Below, one piece after another: positions 42,566 through 51,049 of a DNA stretch of 64,000 nt; position 1 is the first letter of the stretch, and each line of letters opens with the position of its first letter. The DNA comes from a virus. Below the pieces are notes generated by a model. It had not been told where the DNA came from. It made no database searches and worked only from the letters and a program-made list of their open reading frames with translations. The position numbers were made by a program, and so were the translations under genes. The DNA lies in the IMG/VR virus record IMGVR_UViG_3300020121_000439, positions 1 through 64,000 of that record; one strand, 5' to 3'.

Positions 42566-45500
42566 CTAGATTATAGGCGACATATCACGCCAGTTGGAGA
42601 TTTTCACAAGAGACGCCTTGTGCTCGGTCGGTATTATCATTCCCGGCATCTCGACCGTCTCCCGCGACATCAACCCATTCGCCCACCACGCCGCTTGCTT
42701 CGGTTCCACATCATTCCTTACTTCCCACAGAATCGAGTCGTGAACCTGCAACACGGGACGCATGGGTCGGCCTTTCACCATCTCGCGCCAACCGTCCACT
42801 AAAGCGAGTTTCGTCAAATGCGCTATGGGATTCGACCCCGCCATCGCCGCAGCAGTTTTCATCTTCTCCTCATCCTCGCCGAGCATAGTGAGATAGTATC
42901 CGTGTGGACTCACGTACGCTCCCTGACGCTCAATCATCTCCCCAATCTTCCGCTGGAACGCGCGCGCTCCCGGATACGCCCCAAACAACCGCTTCAACAC
43001 CTCCAACGCCTTGATCCTGTTCTCATACGTCTTGTCCCCGAACGCGCGCTGCGCCAGATTACTCCCCGTGAACGTCACGATTTTCCCGTTAAACTTCCAC
43101 TCGGGCCAGATTTCCCTCGCACCAATATCAATTTCTTTCTTCACCTTCCCCGTGATCTCGCGGGGGAGCTTGAGCTGAATGCCCTCTAAATAGAACGACC
43201 CGTGCGTGGCCGACTTCGCCGCTTGCCGAGTCTTCCCTCCTCCCGTTAATTTTACAAACTCCATCTCCGCCGTAAGCCCCATCATCTCCGAAGTTTGCGT
43301 ATGACCATCTACGTCCAGCGGAATGCTATGTCCGGACTGGTGCAGGAAACATCTGTTTTCCGCGTTGCTAAAATCTGATTCGAGAAGGTAGTGCCCTGGC
43401 GACGCGATAATCCCCCGGCGCACGAGCTTGCCTACGGATATACCCTTAAACTTCGCGCACGTCAACGTGGGGTGCTTCTCGATCCTCTCCCCGCACTCGC
43501 AGTTGTGGCGGTCCATGCGACGGGCCGAGACGTTCTGCAAGTTCGGTGAAACACAGTTATGAGCGCATATTTCCCCAGCGATAAAGTTGTGCGTCTCATC
43601 TATTTCCAGATCATAGACATCGACCTCACCACGCAACCGTTCAACGCTAGTAATGATGTGGTTGTAAGGAACAAACCCAGCGCGTTCTTGAATTTTGCGG
43701 AAACGGTAATAGCACATCGGCAGCTTCTTCATTGCCCGAATGTAACCGAGGCGTTTGAAATTTCGTCTATGACGAGCGATAAATTTAGCGTCTACTCTCT
43801 CCGAACCACAAAACTCTTCCGCGATTTTCTTCCAGGACACACGCTTGCGCTTTAGAAGTTTCTGGAAACACTCGTAGTCGAAATGGTGCTTTCGGCACAC
43901 CTTCACAGGCGAACCCTTCGCAGCACGCAGCTCCTTTTCCAACCACTCTTTCGAACGGTTTAGTTGTAGCTTGCAGTTGTTGCGACGAAGAACCTCCAGA
44001 AAACTCTTTCTCTCTCTCTTCCACCTGCGTTTCATGTGAAAGCTACGAATATCATGAAGCTTCACTGCAAAGCCTGGCGCATGATCTTTCATGTGCTGTG
44101 AGTGCGTTTTACCTTCGAGATTATCAGGAACATTGTTCAAACGATTGTGGTCTTTGTGGTGAACCGCTTGGGGCCGTTTGTTAAAGAGCTTCCGGTAAAC
44201 GAAGCGGTGCTCCCGATTGATTTCTCTGTGACCTGTGGCCCACAATCTCGCGTATCCAAGAGAGGTACCGCGAGCCAACGACAGCGTGCGGTCTCCGGGC
44301 TGAAGCAACCCGGCTTCTTTGTACGACCCATCCACCAACCGAATCCGATGATCCGGCGTTACGTCCACGAAGCCAGTCTTTCTCTTGCTTCCTCCAGCTT
44401 TCCAGTGAACACGAACGACTTCACGTTTACCGTTGCAAAAAGTCTTAAGAACGCGGCGTAATTGCAACCTCTTTCTTTCGTCGAAGGTGTAAGCCCAATC
44501 CCCAACCCGCACGTCCTCAATAGGAATTCCCTTGGGAAATTTCACGACATCCCGAAGAACCTCAATCGGCGTTCCTTTAGCGATGCACTGAAGCCGCCCA
44601 GTGGAAGTAAACATCCCTAACCTGGGATGAATCTTCCCGTACGCGTCCATATACCCCTTCCAGTTCCCGCTTTTGTCCTTCGTCACCGGAGCGTACCAGC
44701 GCGCGACGCCTGCGCCGAGTTCTTTGTGGTCGAGGCTTAAGTGGAGTTCTTCGTCCTCGTACTCCTCACACGCCTCGCGAATTGTCGTTTCCTGCCAGTC
44801 GTCGAGCACGATACCTTTCTTCTTAAAGTGCTCAATCGCAGCTTTGTTAGACTTCGGGTTGAACGGCAGAATGCCTTCGATGTGTGCTTTCTGGCGTTCG
44901 AATTCGCCCTGAAGCCCGCTCTCTCCGTCTTCTCCATAAAGATATTTCTTGTCCGCCTGCACCCCATACCGGGCCATCTCGCCCAGCACGTACGCGAGTT
45001 CGCGATGGAGAGGGTAGAGTTTCTCCACTCCCCGGATAATACTGGATTTCAGAATGTGCGGGAAACCCCACACGGGACCGAGCGAGTCCACGGCGTTATA
45101 GGCGTACTCCGAGTGAATACGGCACGGTCGCGAACCGTCACACCCGTTCTCCATACCAATACACGCCTTATAGTTCCGGAGCGAGGTGTAGAGTGAGAGG
45201 AAAGTCCACAGATTCATGTAGCCCTTTCCCTTGCTCGGACCTTCGTCGTCTTCGCCAGACTTTACCCCTTTACAGAGGTGCGCGGAAACCAAAGCGTGCC
45301 GAATAATCGTGTCTTCGATATTCTCCAACTTCAACGTCAACCCAACCTGGCGAAAGGCAAAGAAGTCGGCGGAAGTGAACGCGTGGCCGAGAAAACGCAT
45401 CTCGGGGTGACGCCGGAGCAATTCTTTAAAGTACGGTAATCCGTCGTGAAACGGAACGCTTATGTGCAACGCGCCGTCGCTCACACCGAGAATTGTGGGG

Positions 45501-45688
45501 ACTTCTACGTACCTCTCCGGCTCGTTGTATTCGAGATCACACCCGAGAATGGGAGCGGTGGTTTTGAGGAGCGATTGAGCGAACTTCTGGTAAGGCACGC
45601 TCTCCGGCCCGAAGAGATTGAGGATGCGGGAAGCGTCTTTCTCTATTTTCGGCCATTCCCGAGTAGGAATATACTTCACCGCGACCAC
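42566..45688 (-). CDS. polA: Family A DNA polymerase carrying an intein
   Basis: The 1040-residue precursor holds a 344-residue intein (residues 368-711); the spliced protein is 696 residues. The N-terminal 3'-5' exonuclease has D51/E53 (DLEY), a middle motif near residue 103 and YxxxD near 197. In the polymerase domain, motif A is ESDFSNAENR (D772), motif B RQAAKSATHG with R821/K825 and motif C QVHDSI (H983-D984). Motif C ends in Ser instead of the usual Glu. The intein sits in the GRL/PNLQN segment before motif A. It replicates the phage genome. Confidence 0.95.
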   Translation of the reverse strand: MVAVKYIPTREWPKIEKDASRILNLFGPESVPYQKFAQSLLKTTAPILGCDLEYNEPERYVEVPTILGVSDGALHISVPFHDGLPYFKELLRRHPEMRFLGHAFTSADFFAFRQVGLTLKLENIEDTIIRHALVSAHLCKGVKSGEDDEGPSKGKGYMNLWTFLSLYTSLRNYKACIGMENGCDGSRPCRIHSEYAYNAVDSLGPVWGFPHILKSSIIRGVEKLYPLHRELAYVLGEMARYGVQADKKYLYGEDGESGLQGEFERQKAHIEGILPFNPKSNKAAIEHFKKKGIVLDDWQETTIREACEEYEDEELHLSLDHKELGAGVARWYAPVTKDKSGNWKGYMDAYGKIHPRLGMFTSTGRLQCIAKGTPIEVLRDVVKFPKGIPIEDVRVGDWAYTFDERKRLQLRRVLKTFCNGKREVVRVHWKAGGSKRKTGFVDVTPDHRIRLVDGSYKEAGLLQPGDRTLSLARGTSLGYARLWATGHREINREHRFVYRKLFNKRPQAVHHKDHNRLNNVPDNLEGKTHSQHMKDHAPGFAVKLHDIRSFHMKRRWKRERKSFLEVLRRNNCKLQLNRSKEWLEKELRAAKGSPVKVCRKHHFDYECFQKLLKRKRVSWKKIAEEFCGSERVDAKFIARHRRNFKRLGYIRAMKKLPMCYYRFRKIQERAGFVPYNHIITSVERLRGEVDVYDLEIDETHNFIAGEICAHNCVSPNLQNVSARRMDRHNCECGERIEKHPTLTCAKFKGISVGKLVRRGIIASPGHYLLESDFSNAENRCFLHQSGHSIPLDVDGHTQTSEMMGLTAEMEFVKLTGGGKTRQAAKSATHGSFYLEGIQLKLPREITGKVKKEIDIGAREIWPEWKFNGKIVTFTGSNLAQRAFGDKTYENRIKALEVLKRLFGAYPGARAFQRKIGEMIERQGAYVSPHGYYLTMLGEDEEKMKTAAAMAGSNPIAHLTKLALVDGWREMVKGRPMRPVLQVHDSILWEVRNDVEPKQAAWWANGLMSRETVEMPGMIIPTEHKASLVKISNWRDMSPII
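43556..44587 (-). mobile_element. Intein with HNH homing domain in the polymerase
   Basis: The element starts CIAKGTPIEV (Cys1, block A), has block B VDVTPDHRI, an HNH domain AVHHKDHNRLNNVPDNLEG and ends VYDLEIDETHNFIAG with C-terminal His-Asn (HN) followed by Cys in the extein. It is inserted between GRLQ and CVSPNLQN of the polymerase, next to motif A, a classic invasion site at the most conserved sequence. All splicing residues are present, so it should self-splice. Confidence 0.92.
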
Positions 45689-45746: not shown

Positions 45747-46052
45747 TCATAAACGCTCCAACGCTGCCGTTGCTTCCCGAATGCAATTCCGGCGATGCTG
45801 CTCGAACGCGGCGTCAATTCCCGGCACGACGCACCCGCCGTTCATTTGTGAGAGCGACCGTCCTACGATTTTAAACCCATTCTCGTAACCGTTTACGTGG
45901 TAAACAATCACCTTCCCACCGTCCTCCAACTCCAAATCGTGCGGCTCGGTGTGTAACCACACGGTAGCGCGTTGTGACCACGTTTTCGCGGCCCAACTGC
46001 GCTCGGGCACAGTCGAGATTCCAAACAATTCGTTTTCCAATCGTATTCTCAT
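45747..46052 (-). CDS. Hypothetical protein (101 aa)
   Basis: The start MRIRLENELFGISTV overlaps the sigma-factor stop in an ATGA junction. The protein is alpha/beta and contains a Cys near the C-terminus (RNCIREATAALE). It lies between the sigma factor and the polymerase. Family unknown. Confidence 0.6.
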   Translation of the reverse strand: MRIRLENELFGISTVPERSWAAKTWSQRATVWLHTEPHDLELEDGGKVIVYHVNGYENGFKIVGRSLSQMNGGCVVPGIDAAFEQHRRNCIREATAALERL

Positions 46053-46567
46053 TTCACTAACCTCCTCAACTCCCTCACCGCCCTGAACGCCGTCGCGCGG
46101 ACGGTGTTGCGATTACCACTCGGTCCGGCAATCTCGCGATACGTCTCGCCGCAGACATAATGCCGATGAATAACCCGGCGGTCACGGGAATTCAATCGTT
46201 CGACGGCGGCGTTCATCGTGAGCAATTCCGGAACCAACTCGACCCGGCGGTCTCGCACGACAAGTTGCCGAGGGAGCGGTTTTCGCTCACCTTCCTCGTT
46301 CTCCACGACCACTTCGAGCGGTTCGAACCTTACGCCGGCCCGGGCGTCCTTTCGCAACACTAGCAACGCACAATTCACCGCGACACGATAGATCCAGGTC
46401 CACGGCGCGGCGTCGCCGCGAAACTCCCCCAATCCCCGCCACACCCTCAACCACGTCTCCTGCGCGGCGTCGTCGATGTCGTTGGGACGGTAGCGGAGGA
46501 TCAAGGCGATCACCGCACGGACGCGGGGGGCGTAGCGGGAGTGGAGGGTGGGGAAGTCGGGGGTCAC
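46049..46567 (-). CDS. Sigma-70-family (ECF-like) sigma factor
   Basis: I choose the GTG at 46567, which overlaps the previous stop (GTGA). Region 2 is DDAAQETWLRVWRGLGEFRG with the AAPWTWIYRVAVNCALLVL helix, and region 4 is LNSRDRRVIHRHYVCGE followed by YREIAG and a helix-turn-helix. This is the two-domain layout of ECF sigma factors. It could redirect host polymerase to phage promoters; the recurrent TAAACTA boxes are candidate targets, though ECF promoters usually have an AAC-containing -35. The link is inference. Confidence 0.85.
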   Translation of the reverse strand: MTPDFPTLHSRYAPRVRAVIALILRYRPNDIDDAAQETWLRVWRGLGEFRGDAAPWTWIYRVAVNCALLVLRKDARAGVRFEPLEVVVENEEGERKPLPRQLVVRDRRVELVPELLTMNAAVERLNSRDRRVIHRHYVCGETYREIAGPSGNRNTVRATAFRAVRELRRLVK

Positions 46568-47574
46568 GGGATAGTGGACTCCGGCGTAATGGGCGCATTC
46601 GACCCGCAAACACACGACCCCTGCTGGCACACCAAACACAGGCCGGGACGTGGCTTCTTCGGGCGTGGGGGCGGGGTTAGAACGCCGGTCACAACGTCAA
46701 TCAAATCCAGCAAATTAGGGCTGGGCACGATCGCGCCGAGATTGTTCAACGTGGTGATGATACGGTCGGCTAATTCCGCTCGTGCAACCTCCGCCTTCGA
46801 TTTCTTCTTCGGTCGTTCGCTCTTCGGCATCGCGCTTCTCCTCGCCTTCTCCGCTTTGATACTAAGCGTGTTTACGCGTGTTGTCAACCAGTTTTCGTTG
46901 ACAAATTCATAATGCCCTCTACTTTTGGTCACGTTTTTAAAATATCCAAAGTACGTGTCCACCGCGTTGCCGCCCATTAGTAAAAGGACGCGTTCGCCCT
47001 GGTCCGCGAATTCCTTCACTTTACGCAAATCCTCGACGATGAGCAAATATGGAGTGGTCTCCCTCAAGACCGCACTTGGATGTATGGAAAATACCACGAC
47101 CGTCGGCTTGAACTCGTCGATGCGATCGTACCGGCGACATGCGTGCGCGGCGATGTTCTTCGCGTTGCCCGTGGGCCAGTTCGCGCCGCCCTTCGACTTC
47201 GGCGGAATGCACCGCAGGGCGTTGTCGATCATTATTCGATCTCGTTGGATTCCCGCCGCTTCGAGCATTTGGTTGAAGAGAAACCCGGTGCGGCCGACGA
47301 CGGGAACGCCCCGCGCCAGCAATCTCGGCTCAATCTCGGGATAACGCTCCCGGCGTCGTTTCATCTCCGCCTGGGACTCCCGCACCTCACCCAACACGTA
47401 CCGTTTCTTGTTCCCCGGCGGGGGCCACACGGAGAAGTTCACTTCTTCAAGGTAGGGCGATTCGAGGACGATCATTATATTCGTGCGTGCGGGATCCCCG
47501 CAGCCCACGACGAAGCCTTTCCCAAGACCGTACAACGAACACGCCGAACACAAAGGTGGGTGCCAATTCGACAT
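46564..47574 (-). CDS. Uracil-DNA glycosylase superfamily protein (family 4/5-like)
   Basis: The start MSNWHPPLCSACSLYGLG is preferred to an upstream ATG inside the previous gene. CSAC and later Cys residues (VVGCGDP, ALRCIPP) are placed like the 4Fe-4S ligands of family 4/5 UDGs; GRTGFLFNQMLEAAGIQRDR and FSIHPS match later family blocks. Base excision or removal of uracil from phage DNA is likely. A C-terminal extension with a second CxxC pair (LCLVCQQGSCVCG) is unusual. It is coupled to the sigma gene by GTGA. Confidence 0.78.
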   Translation of the reverse strand: MSNWHPPLCSACSLYGLGKGFVVGCGDPARTNIMIVLESPYLEEVNFSVWPPPGNKKRYVLGEVRESQAEMKRRRERYPEIEPRLLARGVPVVGRTGFLFNQMLEAAGIQRDRIMIDNALRCIPPKSKGGANWPTGNAKNIAAHACRRYDRIDEFKPTVVVFSIHPSAVLRETTPYLLIVEDLRKVKEFADQGERVLLLMGGNAVDTYFGYFKNVTKSRGHYEFVNENWLTTRVNTLSIKAEKARRSAMPKSERPKKKSKAEVARAELADRIITTLNNLGAIVPSPNLLDLIDVVTGVLTPPPRPKKPRPGLCLVCQQGSCVCGSNAPITPESTIP

Positions 47575-49776: not shown

Positions 49777-50031
49777 CTAAACTTCTTTGTCCGGTTCCGC
49801 TTCGTCTGAGTACAGCGTGTCGTCGTCCTCGTCCGGCGGCGGTCCCAGCACCTTTTCCATCCGCTGCCACGCGGCCTTCAACGCTTTGTGAGCATCGCGG
49901 AAATCCCGCGCCTTCACCTCGGGGAATGACGAGCCCGTAATAAAATACTCAAACCCGCCTTCCCATTGGAGCTTGGCCCACACCTCGTGTTTCTGCTCGG
50001 GGGTCATTTTGGTGGATTTCGTTTTTGCCAT
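49777..50031 (-). CDS. Hypothetical acidic protein (84 aa)
   Basis: The start MAKTKSTKMTPEQKH follows AGGAG about eight bases upstream. A helical middle (DFRDAHKALKAAWQRMEKV) leads to a very acidic tail (DEDDDTLYSDEAEPDKEV). It lies directly downstream of the structured RNA on the same strand, so it would be transcribed after it. Function unknown. Confidence 0.62.
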   Translation of the reverse strand: MAKTKSTKMTPEQKHEVWAKLQWEGGFEYFITGSSFPEVKARDFRDAHKALKAAWQRMEKVLGPPPDEDDDTLYSDEAEPDKEV

Positions 50032-50053
50032 CGCGTTTTCTCCTCAATTCGAA

Positions 50054-50478
50054 TCGGCCAGCCATGTGTACGGTTGCCGCCGTAATCGCCGTCTGCCCAG
50101 CAAGGCATCGACGACCGCTGGCCGAACTTTCGCCAAAGGTGCTCTGCCCACTGAGCTACGGCAGGCAGTCCTGCCGAGGGGGATTCGAACCCCCGACCTC
50201 CTTGGACGCTTTTTACGAAAGTGGCCCGGCCCCGAAGGACTGGCCCAAAGAGGCGTCGGGCCCATAAGACCCCCGCCACCACCTCTCGTAACTTTAGCGG
50301 TCGAATGTGCTCGACCACTAAACCTCCGGGAACGGGCTGAACAGCACTGTGCTGCCCATTTAACCCGCTGTTCTCGTCAGCAGTACCGATTCCCGGCATC
50401 TGGGTCAACGGAGAGGGAATGGAGAACCCCTCCGCCTTATGCTTATCCGCCGCTCCGTAACCCCAGGGGTCGCTCCAT
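50054..50478 (-). ncRNA. Structured RNA with a circularly permuted tRNA-like core
   Basis: No convincing gene fills this 425-base gap inside a tightly packed operon. Several long perfect stems occur in order: ATGGAG/CTCCAT (50473-50478 with 50419-50424, continued by ACCCC/GGGGT), CCGGGAA/TTCCCGG (50326-50332 with 50390-50396), a hairpin TTTAGx GGTCGA/TCGACC xCTAAA (50293-50322) and TCGGCCAGC/GCTGGCCGA (50117-50125 with 50054-50062). In the middle lies a tRNA in altered order: T arm (GGGGG TTC GAAT CCCCC), then an acceptor-like hairpin (CGGCAGG ACTG CCTGCCG), then a D arm (GCTC/GAGC). The anticodon-stem strands AAGG and CCTT and a further CGAAAGT/ACTTTCG pair enclose it. Large ornate phage RNAs such as GOLLD and ROOL often sit near tRNAs; permuted group I introns are another possibility. 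I cannot assign a class. Confidence 0.65.
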
Positions 50479-50656
50479 ACAACATGGGGCTCGAACCGAA
50501 ACGGCGTTTTTACCCAGTACAACTCGAAATGAAAAGCCCCGCGTAGTGTCAGAGCTGGTTGACTCCGACCATTTTACACACCCTCTCTCAGCGTGTTCTC
50601 TCCTCGGTTACGGGGACAAGGTGCACGGCGGCACCACGGAATCACTCAAGAATCCG

Positions 50657-51049
50657 TTAAATTCGTCCTTCAAACCTCGGTTCGTCCCAGGCATCCACAA
50701 AATAAATCTCGTCTCCGTTCTTCGCGACGAGAAACGGATCGGCCTTGGGATCGCTAAGGTGCTGAATATAGAACTGCACCTCCGGCAGGACCTCCTTGAT
50801 GCGGATGGCCTTGTCCAGCACAAACTCCGGCACCGGGCGTTTGTATTCCGATAGCAGCGTATGTTGCCACGACGCCACTGTGAACCACCCCGACACCCAA
50901 TCTTTCAGACGCTCCACCGCAACTTCCTTGGTGCGTCGGCCGATCTCTTCCATCTGGTAGTCGATCACCATATTGGCGTCGAGAACGTCCATCTCAAGTT
51001 TTAGCAGTGTTTCGGTGAGCTTCCCTGAAAACACGCCAAAACTGCTCAC
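50657..51049 (-). CDS. Hypothetical protein (130 aa)
   Basis: The frame begins with a GTG at 51049; MDVLDANMVIDYQM at 50992 is an alternative, and neither has a strong SD. The protein has a helical region (EIGRRTKEVAVERLKDWVSG) and an acidic C-terminus with WDEPRF. Function unknown. The structured RNA lies downstream. Confidence 0.52.
   Translation of the reverse strand: MSSFGVFSGKLTETLLKLEMDVLDANMVIDYQMEEIGRRTKEVAVERLKDWVSGWFTVASWQHTLLSEYKRPVPEFVLDKAIRIKEVLPEVQFYIQHLSDPKADPFLVAKNGDEIYFVDAWDEPRFEGRI

What the first reader, a model, noticed from the sequence alone, without database searches (positions are those of the whole stretch)
50054..50478. Structured RNA with a circularly permuted tRNA inside a replication operon
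On the minus strand the order is T arm, acceptor stem, D arm: T arm GGGGG-TTCGAAT-CCCCC (50178-50194), then CGGCAGG-ACTG-CCTGCCG (a seven-pair acceptor stem closed by four bases), then D arm GCTC...GAGC (50141-50156). The anticodon-stem halves AAGG and CCTT, extended by CGAAAGT/ACTTTCG, hold the outer ends together, so the rest of the RNA replaces the anticodon loop. Four more perfect long-range stems surround it. A permuted tRNA gene, a permuted group I intron or a new ornate phage RNA of the GOLLD/ROOL type would each explain it. One base is extra between T arm and acceptor and no anticodon can be assigned, so it may be a mimic rather than a tRNA.
Basis: partly seen in the sequence, partly recalled or inferred. 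Interest (0 to 1): 0.9.

Follow-up and report, generated by a model that had tools for sequence, protein, structure and literature searches.

The report
Phage RNA mimicking a tRNA, Y-RNA-like
A phage carries, between two genes, a structured RNA whose core is a tRNA imitation with its parts in rotated order; it is the same kind of imitation found in bacterial and phage Y RNAs, but here the usual Ro protein gene and the usual Ro-binding sequence are missing.

Summary
The permuted order (T arm, closed acceptor hairpin, D arm) is real, exact and far beyond chance. It is not a processed permuted tRNA gene, a permuted group I intron, GOLLD or ROOL. It is the tRNA-mimic module of a YrlA-type Y RNA, the RNA partner of Ro60/Rsr proteins. 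Rfam's best hit is YrlA (31.6 bits, below its cut-off of 69). BLAST hits lie in unannotated gaps beside Ro-like genes in Streptomyces, Mycobacterium and Microbacterium phages. In 66 of 80 viral Ro loci the same module sits upstream of Ro, with strong covariation in the acceptor hairpin. A covariance model built from these, without the window, finds the window element at 64.9 bits (E 2e-13). The element is still unusual: no Ro-like protein is detectable in its 68.3-kb record, the Ro-binding motifs of its relatives are absent, there is no anticodon arm, and two further well-folded domains flank it (minus strand only). I call it a new variant of a known kind. That it binds a Ro protein is unproven. 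Two side findings may interest more: about half of the viral modules carry a complete anticodon arm split at 28/29, and the module also accompanies several other Ro-like families.

The parts
50178..50194 (-). T arm, 5 bp stem, loop TTCGAAT
   Evidence: sequence; R1 alignment; Rfam YrlA alignment
50159..50176 (-). closed acceptor hairpin CGGCAGG-ACTG-CCTGCCG, 7 bp
   Evidence: sequence; the equivalent hairpin covaries in 72 viral elements, nearly all Ro-linked
50141..50156 (-). D arm GCTC-AGTGGGCA-GAGC
   Evidence: sequence; R1
50136..50203 (-). tRNA-mimic module closed by AAGG/CCTT (equivalent of the outer anticodon stem)
   Evidence: sequence; R1 hit 50138-50201, 64.9 bits
50126..50222 (-). 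module plus second closing stem ACTTTCG/CGAAAGT
   Evidence: sequence; MFE -41.4 kcal/mol, z -2.6 (the D arm is replaced by other pairs in that MFE)
50054..50125 (-). 3' domain: 9-bp stem TCGGCCAGC/GCTGGCCGA enclosing two hairpins
   Evidence: fold z -4.3, 0 of 200 shuffles as good; 9-bp stem
50240..50380 (-). 5' domain: several hairpins, including a 12-bp one
   Evidence: fold z -4.1
50032..50656 (-). intergenic gap that holds the structured RNA; RNA ends unknown
   Evidence: flanking ORFs 49777-50031 and 50657-51049, both minus; no protein family for ORFs across the gap and no phage homologue of the longest minus-strand one; minus-strand folding signal

Best explanation
The minus strand of the gap encodes a structured noncoding RNA whose core is the tRNA-mimic module of a YrlA-type Y RNA. 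Shown: the module's order and its relationship to modules beside viral Ro genes. Inferred: the module folds as a linear molecule into the tRNA elbow (T and D loops docked, acceptor arm closed by a tetraloop), is not spliced or aminoacylated, is recognised by proteins that bind tRNA, and serves as the effector-binding arm of an RNP, as YrlA does when it links Rsr to PNPase. In this phage the protein-binding side is changed: the partner would be a host Ro protein, one encoded outside the 68.3-kb record, or a protein too diverged to detect.
For: Rfam YrlA is the best-scoring match, full length, 31.6 bits. blastn hits in phages lie in mostly unannotated gaps beside annotated Ro-like or RNA-binding protein genes. 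Viral Ro loci: 66 of 80 have the module within 1.6 kb upstream of Ro, median 141 nt. Acceptor hairpin pairs covary, with both sides changed in up to 36 of 72 sequences. A model built without the window scores the window element 64.9 bits, next best in the window 8.0. Function of the YrlA tRNA-like domain: PMC8394870, PMC7790460.
Against: No TROVE, DUF2828-type, phrog_850, vWA or other Ro-like protein in the record. The Ro-side motifs common in relatives (TGCGNAG, [AU]UACUUC, GACUUUGAUCU) are absent near the module (only a loose match GTCCTTC, expected by chance about once in seven such stretches). The Rfam score is below the gathering cut-off, although Ro-linked phage modules also fail it. The MFE does not form the D arm. 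Model R1 also scores ordinary tandem tRNAs at up to 65 bits, so its score alone does not separate these; the absence of tRNAs and the perfect hairpin do. No usable relative of this phage was found, so there is no covariation within its own lineage.
Confidence: 0.86

Rival explanations
1. A free-standing tRNA decoy or protein-binding RNA that works without any Ro protein, for example by occupying anticodon nucleases, PNPase or tRNA-modifying enzymes, with the flanking domains giving stability or regulation. (This shares the module identification with the best explanation and differs in mechanism.)
For: No Ro-like gene and no Ro motif found; two extra folded domains. Hughes et al. propose that the YrlA tRNA-like domain could competitively inhibit an anticodon nuclease (PMC7790460).
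Against: The record may be incomplete and hosts can carry Rsr. Several records that at first looked Ro-free turned out to carry other Ro-like families. The window module has no anticodon loop to act as bait.
Confidence: 0.35
2. A true permuted tRNA gene whose two halves are joined after transcription.
For: Exact order of tRNA parts.
Against: No anticodon loop at the expected place (AAGCGTC upstream of CAAGG) while related viral modules do have one; one base extra between T arm and acceptor; the acceptor loop is ACTG, not CCA; no group I intron match.
Confidence: 0.03
3. A permuted group I intron-exon, GOLLD or ROOL RNA.
For: Large structured phage RNA with a tRNA-like part.
Against: No match for any of these families at gathering threshold in the window, nor up to E 10 in the region; the module is explained by Ro-linked relatives.
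Confidence: 0.02
4. Remnant of two tandem tRNA genes (3' half of one, 5' half of the next).
For: Tandem tRNAs give the same order of arms and can score as high with R1.
Against: No tRNA in the window by ARAGORN or in the record by RF00005; the two acceptor halves pair perfectly over 7 bp with a 4-nt loop; no D arm upstream or T arm downstream.
Confidence: 0.04

Closest known systems
YrlA (Rfam RF02553), bacterial Y RNA with a tRNA-like domain
   Same: Permuted T arm, acceptor hairpin, D arm; full-length alignment at 31.6 bits
   Different: Below the Rfam cut-off; no Ro-binding motif found; no rsr gene in the record; flanked by two extra folded domains
Y-RNA-like modules beside Ro-like genes in Streptomyces phages Alone3, BRock, GiJojo and pSt2308, Microbacterium phage FuzzBuster, Mycobacterium phages Kingsolomon and Lolly9 (not annotated as RNA)
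   Same: 78-84% identity over about 60 nt; same order; several share the extra base between T arm and acceptor
   Different: They adjoin a Ro-like gene; the Streptomyces ones have TGCGNAG/UACUUC motifs; FuzzBuster's has an anticodon arm
Circularly permuted tmRNA (recalled, not tested beyond Rfam and ARAGORN)
   Same: Order T arm, acceptor, then 5' part
   Different: True four-pair D stem here; only the T arm matches RF00023, 17.3 bits; ARAGORN finds no tmRNA; no tag frame was sought

Membership tests
YrlA-type bacterial Y RNA | tRNA-like domain: T arm, closed acceptor hairpin, D arm in this order | tested here: met
YrlA-type bacterial Y RNA | score above Rfam gathering cut-off (69 bits) | tested here: not met
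   31.6 bits; Ro-linked phage modules also fall below it
YrlA-type bacterial Y RNA | Ro-binding stem formed by the RNA ends, with conserved motif | tested here: not met
   A closing stem is present, but the motifs of viral relatives are absent
YrlA-type bacterial Y RNA | gene near rsr/Ro | tested here: not met
   No Ro-like protein in the 68.3-kb record; the record may be incomplete
YrlA-type bacterial Y RNA | binding to Rsr and PNPase; substrate of DusA and TruB | not testable with these tools
   known for YrlA (PMC8394870)
permuted tRNA gene | complete tRNA with anticodon after joining | tested here: not met
   no anticodon arm
permuted tRNA gene | joined or circular product in vivo | not testable with these tools
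   needs RNA-seq
group I intron (permuted) | group I core | tested here: inconclusive
   no Rfam match, but a permuted core split in two could be missed by a linear model
GOLLD / ROOL | match to the covariance model | tested here: not met

The most novel reading that the evidence does not exclude
The phage makes a large multi-domain RNA that carries a Y-RNA-type tRNA mimic but works without a Ro protein, as a stand-alone tRNA decoy or as the scaffold of a new kind of RNP.
Probability: 0.3. Interest if true: 0.68.

Novelty: new variant of a known kind. Interest (0 to 1): 0.5.

Why it matters
It shows that the tRNA-mimic module of Y RNAs also occurs where no Ro protein can be found, set in a larger RNA. 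That makes a question testable: is the mimic useful by itself, for example against host enzymes that attack or handle tRNA? The survey also shows that modules of this kind, not annotated as RNA, accompany most viral Ro genes and several other Ro-like families, and that many of them imitate the whole tRNA, anticodon included.

Tried and rejected
Rfam scans for tRNA, tmRNA, group I intron, GOLLD, ROOL: none above threshold. The tmRNA hit is only the T arm. Relatives of this phage by the 386-aa protein, primase, DNA polymerase and terminase in viral contigs and by the primase in bacterial genomes: one distant primase on a 4.7-kb contig, nothing usable. A specific DNA pattern of the element in genomes and viral contigs: no match. 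A divergent Ro in the window: profile searches negative (best probability 4%). Structure prediction of the 517-aa window protein was uninformative (pLDDT 41). Perfect long stems as evidence: not above chance. R1 as a sole criterion: rejected because tandem tRNAs score as high. The key Y RNA papers (PMC4201824, PMC6281776, PMC6047535) are not held in the library.

Full report
What is there. On the minus strand, between two minus-strand ORFs (49777-50031 and 50657-51049), the sequence reads ACTTTCG-TAAAAAGCGTCC-AAGG-AGGTC-[GGGGG TTCGAAT CCCCC]-T-[CGGCAGG ACTG CCTGCCG]-TA-[GCTC AGTGGGCA GAGC]-A-CCTT-TGG-CGAAAGT. This is a tRNA cut open at the anticodon arm and joined through its acceptor end. ARAGORN finds no tRNA in the window and RF00005 none in the record.

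Is it more than chance. A scanner for this order finds 2 hits in 727 kb of shuffled DNA. The whole gap folds better than shuffles (z -4.96), on the minus strand. Three pieces carry this: the module (z -2.6 to -3.2), a 3' domain 50054-50125 (z -4.3) and a 5' domain 50240-50380 (z -4.1). In the predicted MFE the D arm is replaced by other pairs; single-sequence folding often does this with tRNAs (own knowledge), but it remains a weakness.

What it is. With relaxed thresholds the best Rfam hit is YrlA, the Y-RNA-like family (31.6 bits, E 1.2e-4; gathering 69). blastn against phages hits mostly unannotated places, the best at 78-84% identity. All seven of the loci opened have a gene annotated as Ro-like or RNA-binding protein near the hit. 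From an alignment of viral Ro proteins, 80 viral Ro loci were fetched. In 66 of them at least one such module lies upstream of Ro within 1.6 kb, median 141 nt; of the 92 modules, 82 have both 5' motif pieces (TGCGNAG-like, then UACUUC-like) and 57 also the 3' piece. The alignment of 72 modules shows massive covariation in the acceptor hairpin (up to 36 sequences with both sides changed per pair). A covariance model from these, without the window, scores the window element 64.9 bits, E 2.3e-13, while the next window hit has 8.0 bits. The same model gives up to 65 bits to ordinary tandem tRNAs. The identification therefore rests on the model together with the absence of tRNAs and the closed 7-bp hairpin.

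What is different here. The record (68,306 bases) has no TROVE, DUF2828-type, vWA or phrog_850 match and no profile similarity to the Ro-like groups collected here. The Ro-side motifs of relatives do not occur around the module. Mycobacterium phages Kingsolomon and Lolly9 also lack those motifs although a Ro-like (DUF2828/DUF7788) gene is adjacent, so absence of the motif does not prove absence of a Ro partner. No anticodon arm is present. ORFs across the gap have no Pfam family, and the longest minus-strand one has no homologue in phages.

How it probably works. Published work: YrlA's basal stem binds the Rsr ring, its tRNA-like domain binds PNPase, and the RNA is modified by DusA and TruB (review PMC8394870); the tRNA-like domain has been proposed as a competitive inhibitor of an anticodon nuclease (PMC7790460). 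From memory, not read here: Chen et al. 2014 (RNA 20:1715) reported such Y RNAs in bacteria and phages. By inference the window module is the effector-binding, tRNA-like arm of an RNA whose protein-binding side has changed. That it binds a Ro protein at all is not shown.

Side findings. Among 113 unique modules, nearly all from Ro-linked loci, 58 pass a test for a complete anticodon arm (7-nt loop with U33 and a purine at 37) split between positions 28 and 29; frames shifted upstream by two or more give 0 or 1, while shifts of -1, +1 and -2 overlap the true frame because the variable loop may be 4 to 6 nt. The commonest anticodons are GCU and GUU. A few of the 58 may be ordinary tRNAs. The library held here showed no report of this, but the key Y RNA papers were not readable. 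The module also accompanies DUF2828/DUF7788 proteins, a vWA group related to TROVE by profile comparison (L132, L105; 97%) and a family of about 660 aa (L103, L119, L019) without Pfam hit that resembles the MXAN_6230/SCO0854 RING family and has a low-confidence model of helical repeats followed by strands.

Noticed in passing
L143-L222 and L122-L141 (viral Ro loci), e.g. L144 around 3886, L168 around 3884: About half of the permuted modules (58 of 113) carry a complete anticodon arm split at positions 28/29, mostly GCU or GUU, so they imitate a whole tRNA.
   Followed up: partly
L123, L046, L071, L028; records of L013, L094, L134: The same permuted module occurs with DUF2828/DUF7788 Ro-like proteins; several share CAGCAA ... 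UCUAGUU-like flanks instead of the TROVE-type motif.
   Followed up: partly
L119:1738-4112, L103:5994-9235, L019:1-1788: A protein family of about 660 aa without Pfam hit (partial MXAN_6230/SCO0854 match) lies next to permuted modules; in L119 two modules flank it.
   Followed up: partly
L132:12672-14204 and L105:2069-3640: Divergent vWA proteins beside paired permuted modules; profile comparison links them to TROVE Ro proteins (97%).
   Followed up: partly
window 42566-45688, minus: DNA polymerase ORF appears interrupted by an intein-like insert with an HNH-like segment (seen in the translation).
   Followed up: no
window 46049-46639, minus: Phage gene for a sigma-70 family factor (regions 2 and 4).
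   Followed up: no
window 50054-50125 and 50240-50380, minus: Two strongly folded domains beside the tRNA mimic with no known family; the 3' domain's 9-bp stem competes with a possible GGCC/GGCC extension of the module stem.
   Followed up: partly
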